From Haliclystus octoradiatus (lineage: Eukaryota; Cnidaria; Staurozoa; Stauromedusae; Haliclystidae): 64,000 nucleotides of DNA. Positions 9,101 through 24,100 of the stretch are shown here, one piece after another. Position 1 is the first letter of the stretch, and every line of letters begins with the position of its first letter. Where the stretch lies: the NCBI GenBank assembly GCA_916610825.1, contig OU744453.1:17572241-17636240 (forward strand), written 5' to 3'. Position numbers and translations under genes: made by a program. The notes beneath the pieces were generated by a model. That model made no database searches and was not told the origin of the DNA. It saw only the letters and a list, made by a program, of their open reading frames with translations.

Positions 9101-12100
9101 AGTCACCATTAGTTCATAGTTAACATAGATCCTATCAAGGCCTATTTTTTACTGTTTCATGGATCACATTGCTCTCTGGAAGCGCATGCGTATAACAACA
9201 ATTTCCAACCTTCATTATTAGTTATACAGTAGAAATGATCTACAACTAAGGAACTACAACTAAGCACATCTAAGGAACTTTCAAAAAGTATGTTATGGGG
9301 GATATGCCGCTACAGCCAATTATTCATCAGAAGAAAGATACCAAATTTTGCCAAGGAGATCAGTTAAATTCAATACGCTGTAGACAGTAATGAAAGGTGG
9401 GTGACGTTATAAACAACTTCTACTGTATTACATTCAACGATTTTATAGTAGTTTTCAAGAAAAACGTACCCATCACGACTCACAGCAAGCGAATGAGTAC
9501 CAGTCGGTATTGGAATTGTTTTTTTTTTCTTCTTCAATTTCTTAAGTCTCTTTTTTTCAAGTCTAGCTTCCTCGTCAATTTTTGTCAAATTCTCAGCATC
9601 TGCTAAATTATCAACAGCAATAGCCAAGAAAACATTTAACAAAATATCTATAGGGAATTTAGTTAAAGAAAATAGATTGGAATATAAGAATAATAATCAA
9701 TATAATACAGAACAAGAGAACGGTTGATTCTGATTGGATCTATATTAGTTTGGATGAGAAAGTAGTATAATAATATCCAGTCATTTCTCTGTGTGACTGA
9801 TTCTTGGATAGTGGCGGTAATAGACTACCCCTGCGAAAAATAGTTCAGGAGCTCATGAACAGTTCATGAACGTTAAATGGCTCCAATTTTCCTGAATTGT
9901 TCATGAACCCTCACAGACAGTTCATGAACAGTTCATGAAAATGTGGGGCCATTTAACGTTCATGAGTTGTTCATGAACTCCTGAACTGTTTTCGCAGGGG
10001 GATGGCCCCTTCGATTAAAGGTAAAACAAACGTATTGCACCAAACTGAACTTCAGAACTGATCATAGCGTAATTGAGGTGCTTTTGTCATGAAAAGCTTC
10101 CAGTCTAGATCACAAATCTACAATCTGTGTAGTACAGTCCCATAGAAAAAATCAAGCAATCATACATGGACACTTTGACTATCAGAAAGTTATTGAAAAT
10201 AGTCTATAACTATTATTAATAACTGAAATGATAATTGACAGCAGAAGTCAGTGGCAATAGTTTTCGAATTTTATTATTTTGCTCCTCGACGTTTCGGATA
10301 TCTTCTGTATCCATTTTCAAGAGAAAAGTTTTATTTAAAATATTCTACAAATTTATACTAAAATAACTGTAATTTACATTCTTTTAAATTTAAAATAATA
10401 CGGAGTGGATCCAATCCGCCTGGGAATTGAGATTTGGCTTTAAGTCTCTTAAGAGAAGCATTTCATATATAATACAACAATCCCATTCAGATTTACAATG
10501 ACGTAATACTTGAAAGTGATTGGCCATTTCATCAATGCTTTGATTGTGTATTTTATTATGCTTGCCAGTTGCAGAAGATGCCGAACAGTGTGTTTTAATC
10601 CTCTCGTGTAGGTGATTTTTGGTGTAACCTACATAGCTTGCGTCACACGAGCCACATTTAAATTGATATACTACACACTGTTTGGTAACTAGCTCAGGCT
10701 TTTCTTTGCAATATCTTAGGTCTTCTTTAAGTTTCCGGCTTGTAGAAACAGTTAAAATATATACATTGATTTTACATAACATTGATTCATTGAAATGATA
10801 TTATTAACTACCATTATAGACAGGTGGCCTTTAAATACAGGTTTTATTCAATAGAAAATACCAGAGCCATCTATTTACAAGAGTTGGGACACTGATGCCA
10901 TTTATGTTTTTTGGCCTGGACCCGAGCACGTTTTCAACAGCAGTGCGCATGTGCAAGAGAATGTTGTGTTTTTTTCAGCCATTCAGCTCATTTTGGTACT
11001 CTGTGAAATGGTTTGCGATTGTTTAGCAAGAGTAATATAACCATTTATGAGTTGTCTTTCTCCATATTTATTTGCTGGACTCTCAAAATTAGAATACAAA
11101 TTTACTTCAATGTATACTATGTTATTGATCTCATCAGCATATTGCTCAAGAGTAAATCAGATCAATACTATTGGAATTGCTAAATGGACAAGGAGTTTGT
11201 AGAGTTAAAAGAGTATCTCTTACGCTCTTACGCTTATTCTTTGCAGTCAAAGACAACTTTTTCTAATTCTTGTCCCCAGTTGGAATAGTAAACAATATTT
11301 TATTTCGATTACTATTTCGTCTATTAACACAACAATTAATAATTAAATAGCCTATGCTTGTTTTCACTGTTAAAAGTTGTATTTGTACACGCACTTCGCT
11401 TAAAACAGGAAACCTGGTGCCAAAAGAACAAGAACCCTGGTACCGAAAGTACGAAAATGGCGTCCAAAAAGTCACGTGAATGGCATCTGTCCAATAGGAG
11501 ATGATAGCGGCACATGAAAGCGTGTCCCAACTCTTGTAAATAGATGGCTCTGGAAAATACTATTTTAGACGTTGCAAGAGTGACCACTATAGACAGGTGG
11601 CTGCTGTATGGAGGTGGATGTTATAACAGGTTTAACTGTAGTATAGTCCCATAGAAAAAAATCAACAAATCATACATGGACACTTGGACTATCAGAAAGT
11701 TGTTGGAAATCGTCTATAACTATTATTAACAACTGAATTGATATTATTAACTAAATTAGGGTCAAAAAATATTTCAACATGTGTATTAGAACTAGGTTTT
11801 TTTCATTTCTAACGATAAGAGTTTTAGCAATAAGAGCCTGGAGCTATACTACTACACAGATTGTAGATGTAACACATCTTCTACTTCTAATCATTCACAA
11901 TGCAAAAATTGTAAACACAATTCTGAAATGAAAAGATACAATTTCCTATGACAACCAAAGCAACAAAATAAAAAACAGCAACAATTGACGCAGGATCTTT
12001 GATACCACCCCATGCTAATATACCATAATACATGACAGCATTCCAATCTTCGCCTGTAAGAATCTACCAATAGAACAAAATGGTGTAATCCATAATACCT

Positions 12101-21100: not shown

Positions 21101-24100
21101 TTGTAACAACTCCTAATCATATGATAAATCTTACCAAACAATCGAAGCGATTGAAAAGTGAAGCATAGTAGCCATGGAGACCAAGACAATAGATTTTTAG
21201 AAACATCTCAAAGGTAAATAATCCAAGAAAAAAATAATTTGCTCTATCTGAAATACAAAGCATAAAAATAACTTAGATCATTACAAATTGTTCAACCTAT
21301 TTGTTATTCGACATCAAGATATGTTGATGTGATGTACAGTATCCAAAAGTTGAAATTGGATTTTTATACTTCTTCAATTCTGTAACTCCAGATCAATATG
21401 TTTTATTAATTTATATCATTCAAAATGATTTTCGTTATTAATGTCTAAATAAACTGCTCGTGAATTAACACTGCTTTTGTAAATAATACATTATAAATGC
21501 ATACTACAGTTCAACCTGTATATAACGTCCAGCTACAAGAGGTAGATAAATTGACCACTATGGACAGGTGGCCTTTATATACAGGTTTGATTCAATAAAA
21601 AATACTATTTTTGACATTGCAAGAGTGACCACTGTAGACAGGTGGCCGCCGTATAGAGGTGACCGTTATAACAGGTTTGACTGTATTCATGATTTTATCT
21701 TGTATAAACAGATTCATTGGATAGTATACTAAATTATCGTAAAACAGATGAAAGTGGACTATTGTTGACCCGAGTTATCCATAAATCTCTGTTTCCAGGT
21801 TTTGAAAATCTTGGTTTCAACTAACCGGGTTTCCTTTCCCTACTTTTGAAAGTCCTGATAAAGGCGCCAAGTGAACTAATTTTCACATAGGTTTACTGCT
21901 TACGTCAAAACAGGAGGGAGATCCAGACTAAAATTCACCCAGGTAAAGCAGGTTTCAAATTCAAATTGCCCTAGTATTCCAATAGTCATACCTAAGAATA
22001 AAGTCACATATTCTGGTTGTGCGTAGTGTTCAACGGCAAGACAAAGCGAATTGAGAAACACTGCTATGATAACAATCCAATAGAATGCTTGAGATTTAAC
22101 TAATTTGCGACTTTCTCTGCGTGTTCTATGATGCCATCGAATCAAAATTTTCCTAAAACAAAAACGATATCAATTATTGAATAGAATATTCAGTAATATG
22201 GTGCAGATAAAAATTGAGAAATTAAGAGTTAGTTGAATATTGAAGCAAGTCTACATCACTTTCTGGGCATCAACAAACTTGATTTTCTATTTGCACAAGC
22301 TATTGTTGCGTTTTGCATAGTAGTAAATGGTGATTTTCATTGTCCAACTTTCTGATTTCAAAAAAAGGAATAATATATTTTACTAGAAAAGAGTTTGACC
22401 GTGAATATGTGATATTCGGCAAACAGCGGTACGTTTATAGTTCTACAAGCAAATAGGAAGAAAGTTCCATTCAAGTCTGTTGTGTCCTAAAAGCAAATAT
22501 ATACACTTCAAAAAGTAGAATACGAAAGCTTATAAATTGTGAACTGAAATTGGAAATCAGCATTCTAATAGGATTATTTAATTTCTATCGATTACAACAA
22601 TTAACTTCACTGAAAATAGAAAATAGAAAAAGGAAAATATATCTTACTTTACTCTTGCCCATCTCTGAGTACGCTCAGACCCTTTGTCGTGCCCAGACCC
22701 TCCACCAGTACCTTCCATATTCCAATGACTTGCTTTACGATCACCTTCACAAAAACATTACAATTATCCATCTTCCTCTGAATGTGGTTCGAATGCCTAC
22801 TCTTTTAATTACAAATGTATTTGAAATCACAAAAGTTTAACAAAGCTGCTAGTCTAGCCATCAAATTCTTCTTATTTATTTGATTGAGTGGAGTGAAAAA
22901 TCCCTTGAGTTCTGTTAGCACGTATGCTGAAAGTCTGATGTAATCATTTGTGGTGATGAAGTTTGCCTGGAACCTTGGAACATTATCAGCCACGAAACAC
23001 ATGTCAGTCATTGGATGGGGGGGAGTCATGTTACTCTGTCATATGAGCCAATCCCATTTTTGCTGCTAGATCAACAACAGTAACAGGTTATAACTGATTT
23101 TCTGACACTTCACAACAACATAATTCATGGCAAATTATTATTGACTGTTAAGGACTGTGAATACAATGCAGCTTATCCTAACTCAATTACAGTTGGCTGT
23201 TTCCATCCATTATCAGAAGATGGTACTATCTGACGTCAAGATAATGTCAAGGCTGACGTGAGCTTGGCGGAGTTGAATAAGGAATTTACCCATAGTGGTC
23301 ATGTCAATATACCTACATCATGTATAGCTGTATGTTATACACAGGCTCAATTGCATTTTCGGTTAATGCCTAACAAGTCACTGTTGGACAGGCATACAAG
23401 TGTGGGTGCTTGGACAGACTCCTCTGGATCCACCCGCAGGTCCCACATCCCCTGGCTGTATGTTTTAAACATACTCCATTGTACCTTGCTCAGCAGAGTC
23501 ATCTCCATTCTCGTCACTTGCATCTTCTTCAATATCCTCTATAAATACATAACAAACCATATCAACATGTATGTCTGACAAAAGTAGGAATCCTAGAATC
23601 CTAGATTCCGGAAGACTAGATCAAATTCAGAAGACAATTGATATTTTTAACCGGCATCTTTGCACTTTGTAGTTCAATGTCATACCATTAGACCATCAGT
23701 CCTCGTCTAATGTATGTTTTGCCATTTATTCCTCCTTACATATGCAAAATTAAAAAAAAAAAACATGAAAACTGATGACGACATTGCATACCTGCCTGGT
23801 TAATCCAATCAAGGTAACCTTTAACTGCTTCTTCAACTAATTGTCTTTCTCTAACTTTTTGAAATTTCCCTGATTTTGTTTGCTTTGCTTTTTCTTTTGC
23901 AAATTCACTAAAATGACAAATTAACAATGTTAATACAGTTTAACCTGTATATAACAGCCAGCTACGAGAAGGTAGATAAAGTGACCACTATAGACAGGTA
24001 GTCGGTGTATAGAGGTGACCGTTATAACAGGTTTGACTGTATGTAATTTGTCTATATGTAATTTGTCAATGATATCCTGTAATTACGTAATGTCTAGGGT

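What the first reader, a model, noticed from the sequence alone, without database searches (positions are those of the whole stretch)
11849..24071. Unmerged contig overlap creates a false 6 kb duplication of nine Cav1 exons
The left copy ends, and the right copy begins, at a 200-N gap, and the two copies are colinear and direct. I count 13 one-base indels, mostly in homopolymers, all within roughly the first 1.9 kb of the right copy, and saw no substitutions; about 4.1 kb after that keep a constant offset. Two of the indels break channel exons 14 and 15 only in the right copy. This is what noisy sequence at a contig start would give. A real exon duplication would put AID to domain II S6 twice into the protein, which no known Cav1 has.
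Basis: partly seen in the sequence, partly recalled or inferred. Interest (0 to 1): 0.8.

Follow-up and report, generated by a model that had tools for sequence, protein, structure and literature searches.

The report
Unmerged contig overlap, not gene duplication
Two neighbouring pieces of an animal genome assembly overlap by 6 kb but were apparently never merged, so part of a calcium-channel gene is printed twice; this is an ordinary assembly error of a known kind, not biology.

Summary
Bases 11849-17860 and 18061-24071 are direct copies on either side of the window's only gap, 200 N. The left copy ends and the right copy begins at the gap, to the base. They differ by 0 substitutions and 13 one-base indels, all within the first 1,886 bases of the right copy; the last 4,125 bases are identical.

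The Cav1-like gene lies on the minus strand. Right flank, one copy and left flank splice in frame and align in order with Cav1.2. The duplicated exon block enters and leaves in different codon phases (929 nt, 2 mod 3), so even a clean second copy would frameshift and stop. A 1.1-kb piece of the block has two full-length matches in the 262-Mb assembly, both in this window.

This fits the "homotype false duplication" at contig boundaries described by the Vertebrate Genomes Project. Reads were not available, so a true tandem duplication with an unassembled junction is very unlikely but not excluded. Corrections: eight exons are demonstrated, a ninth is a candidate; the two exonic indels cancel each other's frame.

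The parts
11849..17860 (.). Left copy: last 6,012 bases before the gap
   Evidence: aligned to 18061-24071 with 0 substitutions; ends exactly at the gap
17861..18060 (.). The only run of N in the window, 200 N
18061..24071 (.). Right copy: first 6,011 bases after the gap
   Evidence: begins exactly at the gap
18385..19946 (.). Noisy start of the right copy: span of the 13 one-base indels
   Evidence: 13 of 13 differences here, 12 of 13 in homopolymer runs of 2 or more
24571..24674 (-). Exon with the domain I S6 end (ends ...VLGVLSG), in the right copy's own flank
   Evidence: splices in frame to the AID exon
17581..17696 (-). AID exon, left copy (right copy 23792-23907, identical)
17274..17327 (-). 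I-II linker exon, left copy (right copy 23485-23538, identical)
16236..16275 (-). Candidate 40-nt I-II linker exon, left copy (right copy 22447-22486, identical)
   Evidence: length and phase fit; no independent homology
15781..15941 (-). IIS1 exon, left copy (right copy 21992-22152, identical)
14924..15036 (-). IIS2 exon, left copy (right copy 21135-21247, identical)
14220..14332 (-). IIS3-S4 exon, left copy (right copy 20431-20543, identical)
13169..13300 (-). IIS5 exon, left copy, intact (right copy 19386-19516 is 1 base shorter)
12503..12578 (-). Domain II pore exon 1, left copy, intact (right copy 18718-18794 is 1 base longer)
11940..12063 (-). Domain II pore exon 2 into S6, left copy (right copy 18152-18275, identical)
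9558..9647 (-). Start of the exon with the domain II S6 end ([20 protein letters not shown]), in the left copy's own flank; its 3' end was not set
   Evidence: matched once in the assembly

Best explanation
The 6-kb duplication is an assembly artefact. Two contigs from the same stretch of chromosome overlap end to end by 6 kb; they were placed side by side with a fixed 200-N spacer instead of being merged. Shown: the end-to-end overlap at the gap, the indel-only differences confined to the first 1.9 kb of the right copy, no further full-length match of a 1.1-kb piece of the block in the assembly, and a normal in-frame gene when the overlap is read once. Inferred: that the start of the right contig rests on one or few uncorrected long reads, that these errors kept the assembler from accepting the overlap, and that the spacer came from a scaffolder. 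The animal most likely has one normal copy of this Cav1-type gene region here.
For: Copy edges coincide with both edges of the window's only gap, a round 200 N. 0 substitutions in about 6 kb and 13 one-base indels, all in the first 31% of the right copy, 12 of 13 in homopolymer runs, then 4,125 identical bases. 13 indels in 1,886 bases is about Q22, which I read as uncorrected long-read sequence (inference). Ends from different haplotypes should differ by substitutions: at 0.1% heterozygosity 6 would be expected, probability of none 0.002. Read once, right flank + one copy + left flank splices in frame with the junctions GEFAKE and [21 protein letters not shown] and aligns in order with the best hit, Cav1.2 chain 8eog_K: query 1-287, 308-570 and 565-681 against residues 49-348, 396-657 and 812-941 (weaker cross-matches to the other homologous domains are also listed there). 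Read twice, the block is 929 nt (2 mod 3) and a stop comes 23 codons after the junction. A 1,101-base piece of the block has two full-length 100% matches in the 262-Mb assembly, both in this window. The exon after the block matches once, and matches of the block's protein outside this window are at 22-67% identity.
Against: None found in the sequence. But A-U, gap, U-B is also what a true A-U-U-B would give if its U-U junction was not assembled, so sequence alone cannot exclude that. Read depth and reads across the gap were not available. Assembler, read type and scaffolder are unknown. I could not show that such overlaps or 200-N spacers recur: 20 neighbouring 10-kb stretches held no other gap, apart from one stretch that reads N for half its length, which I take to be masking. 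The insertion-then-deletion order of the 13 indels is not explained by this reading.
Confidence: 0.96

Rival explanations
1. A real, very recent tandem duplication of 6 kb inside the Cav1-type gene, whose internal junction fell in the gap.
For: The printed scaffold has this order, with two near-identical direct copies.
Against: The end-to-start junction is not in the window on either strand. The breakpoints would have to fall exactly at both gap edges. The differences are indels only, in the first 31%. The tandem block is 2 mod 3 and would truncate the channel, which a conserved ion-channel gene should not tolerate (inference).
Confidence: 0.02
2. Heterotype false duplication: the two ends come from the two parental haplotypes.
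For: It would also place near-identical ends on either side of a gap, and is the other published class.
Against: 0 substitutions in 6 kb, 4,125 identical bases in a row, and one-base indels in one end region only. At 0.1% heterozygosity p is 0.002 for no substitution; the animal's heterozygosity is unknown.
Confidence: 0.02

Closest known systems
Homotype false duplication at contig boundaries (Rhie et al. 2021, PMC8081667; passages read)
   Same: Near-identical repeat at a contig boundary, attributed to sequencing errors; the paper says such cases often occur at contig boundaries, and that false duplications can be misread as exon duplications.
   Different: The paper says their length is about that of the reads, which is unknown here; its hummingbird example came from an assembler bug; its cases are vertebrate.
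False exon gain in annotated genes (Ko et al. 2022, PMC9516828; passages read)
   Same: Part of a gene falsely repeated, most often with an assembly gap between the copies; their examples include an exon of another calcium channel gene, CACNA1H, and 9 of 11 coding exons of ZBTB11 (the latter shown as a haplotype case).
   Different: Here eight or nine exons of a Cav1-like gene, no substitution between copies, and no reads to test depth.

Membership tests
Homotype false duplication | The two copies are separated by an assembly gap | tested here: met
   200 N between the copies
Homotype false duplication | The repeat lies at contig boundaries | tested here: met
   left copy ends and right copy begins at the gap edges
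Homotype false duplication | No haplotype-specific variation between the copies | tested here: met
   0 substitutions in about 6 kb; tested on the assembly, not on read k-mers
Homotype false duplication | Sequencing errors in one copy | tested here: inconclusive
   the pattern fits: 13 one-base indels, 12 in homopolymer runs, in the first 1.9 kb of one copy; for 2 of 13 the conserved exon shows which copy is wrong; no reads seen
Homotype false duplication | Very low read depth | not testable with these tools
   no reads available
Homotype false duplication | Length about that of the sequence reads | not testable with these tools
   6.0 kb; read length unknown
Voltage-gated calcium channel alpha1, Cav1 type | Best sequence match among solved channels is Cav1 | tested here: met
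   seven alpha-1C, alpha-1D or unspecified L-type chains 932-942 bits, four alpha-1S chains 894-896, Cav2 722-772, Cav3 453-464 (44 sequences listed). With domain II alone the lead is small: 398 for alpha-1C against 383 for alpha-1B
Voltage-gated calcium channel alpha1, Cav1 type | AID motif after IS6 and NLADAE after IIS6 | tested here: met
   [17 protein letters not shown] and [11 protein letters not shown] in the spliced translation; that these mark the AID and Cav1 is recalled
Voltage-gated calcium channel alpha1, Cav1 type | Four complete domains with the IQ motif | not tested
   pieces of domains I to III were seen; the rest of the gene was not annotated

The most novel reading that the evidence does not exclude
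A real tandem duplication of the AID to IIS6 exons in this animal, with the junction lost in the gap. It would make either a truncated channel or a choice between two alternative exon blocks.
Probability: 0.02. Interest if true: 0.4.

Novelty: not a real feature. Interest (0 to 1): 0.07.

Why it matters
Automatic annotation could make a broken or doubled calcium-channel gene here and report a false exon duplication. Anyone using this gene model, or counting duplications in this assembly, should read the overlap once and treat the right copy's first 1.9 kb as unreliable. Beyond that it is ordinary.

Tried and rejected
A haplotype origin was considered and judged unlikely because there is no substitution. 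A wider family of such repeats was looked for with 1,101 of the block's 6,012 bases (14900-16000): two of 45 listed matches are full length, both in this window; the other 43 lie within query positions 374-591, a dispersed repeat inside an intron; 40 of 2,466 first-look candidates were scored. Looking for other gaps gave none in 20 neighbouring 10-kb stretches, one of which reads N for half its length and is taken as masked. Pfam on single exon ORFs is weak: Ion_trans matched 4 of the 8 ORFs given, only one of them over the curated cut-off. For the meaning of 200 N: a paper search listed 12 papers. In the YaHS paper the four passages found state no gap size. One skink assembly scaffolded with YaHS reports 54 gaps of 200 N each (passages). 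In two further papers the hits on the phrase were unrelated. So the scaffolder is a guess. A paper search for errors at HiFi contig ends found four papers and listed two, neither opened. A search for Cav1 exon duplication in invertebrates listed one paper, on NALCN, not opened; this is no proof that none is in print. The species was not identified.

Full report
Observation. The window has one run of N, 17861-18060, 200 bases. Self-comparison finds 11849-17860 repeated as 18061-24071, in direct orientation, with no mismatch and 13 gaps. Global alignment places all 13 one-base differences between bases 325 and 1,886 of the right copy; six are insertions and seven deletions there. The last 4,125 bases are identical. 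12 of 13 lie in homopolymer runs of at least two, judged by the longer copy.

The gene. The block lies in a voltage-gated calcium channel gene on the minus strand. Eight exons with GT-AG borders and homology were placed in the block, and a ninth short linker exon is demanded by codon phase, with one candidate of 40 nt. The right copy's own flank carries preceding exons, pieces of domain I from IS2 to IS6. The left copy's own flank carries following ones: the end of IIS6, then pieces of domain III. Joined once, these exons align in order with the best hit, a Cav1.2 chain (942 bits); the other Cav1 chains score 894-941, Cav2 722-772 and Cav3 453-464. With domain II alone the lead of Cav1 over Cav2 is small (398 against 383 bits). 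Ion-channel hits on the same strand continue 5 to 9 kb outside the window's left end.

One copy or two. Read once, both splices into and out of the block are in frame and give VLGVLSGEFAKE and [24 protein letters not shown]. The block begins by adding one base to a codon that already has two, and ends one base into the next codon, so its length is 2 mod 3, whatever the linker exon proves to be; with the candidate it is 929 nt. Read twice, the frame is lost at the junction and a stop follows after 367 codons of the joined test sequence, 23 codons past the junction, both with the left block doubled and as the scaffold is printed. This does not depend on the indels. The two exonic indels in the right copy are opposite in sign, so that copy is out of frame only between them.

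Where the copies occur. 1,101 of the block's bases find two full-length 100% matches in the 262-Mb, 33-sequence assembly, both in this window. With the block's protein, five of the nine exons match over the same range in both copies, 6.21 kb apart; the IIS5 and first pore exons match over a shorter range in the right copy; the two linker exons gave no match; the exon after the block matches once. Matches outside this window are at 22-67% identity. The window lies in a 20.7-Mb scaffold.

Mechanism. A dovetail overlap of two contigs gives just this: the left contig's end equals the right contig's start, and each copy continues into its own flank. Noise limited to the first 1.9 kb of the right copy fits a contig end resting on few reads; sequencing errors at contig boundaries are a published cause of such repeats (Rhie et al. 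2021, passages). The step from noise to failed merging is inferred. A fixed 200-N spacer fits a scaffolder that does not measure gap size; one YaHS-scaffolded assembly reports gaps of that size (Bassiana duperreyi, PMC12134992, passages).

Results that do not help or go against. Read depth could not be tested. No other gap was found in the neighbouring stretches, so recurrence in this assembly is untested. The order of the indels, insertions first and deletions later (4 of 1,716 orderings are as extreme), is unexplained and was noticed after the fact. A true tandem duplication with an unassembled junction would print the same scaffold, so it is improbable rather than excluded.

Verdict. The duplication is most likely not a real feature of the genome.

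Noticed in passing
26188-29119: Minisatellite of 54 bp, about 54 copies, 98% alike, between exons of the same gene, 2.1 kb beyond the right copy. It may bear on why the contigs ended nearby; not shown.
   Followed up: no
41331-42525: A run of about 399 AAT units, 99% matches.
   Followed up: no
18385-19946: In the right copy the indels run from insertions to deletions (order ++++-++------); 4 of 1,716 orderings are as extreme. Unexplained.
   Followed up: partly
10390-11552 and 54054-54742: A repeat of about 700 bases, 91% alike, at 10860-11552 and 54054-54742, beside an ORF with a GIY-YIG domain at 10390-10800, minus strand (PF01541, E 5e-6); perhaps a mobile element.
   Followed up: no
about 15294-15474: Dispersed repeat of about 180 bases inside an intron; 43 further matches listed in the assembly, 41 of them at 90-95%.
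   Followed up: partly
47859-48509 and 55891-56064, minus strand: ORFs with an RRM domain (PF00076, E 2e-16) and a G-patch domain (PF01585, E 9e-14); likely exons of neighbouring RNA-binding protein genes.
   Followed up: no
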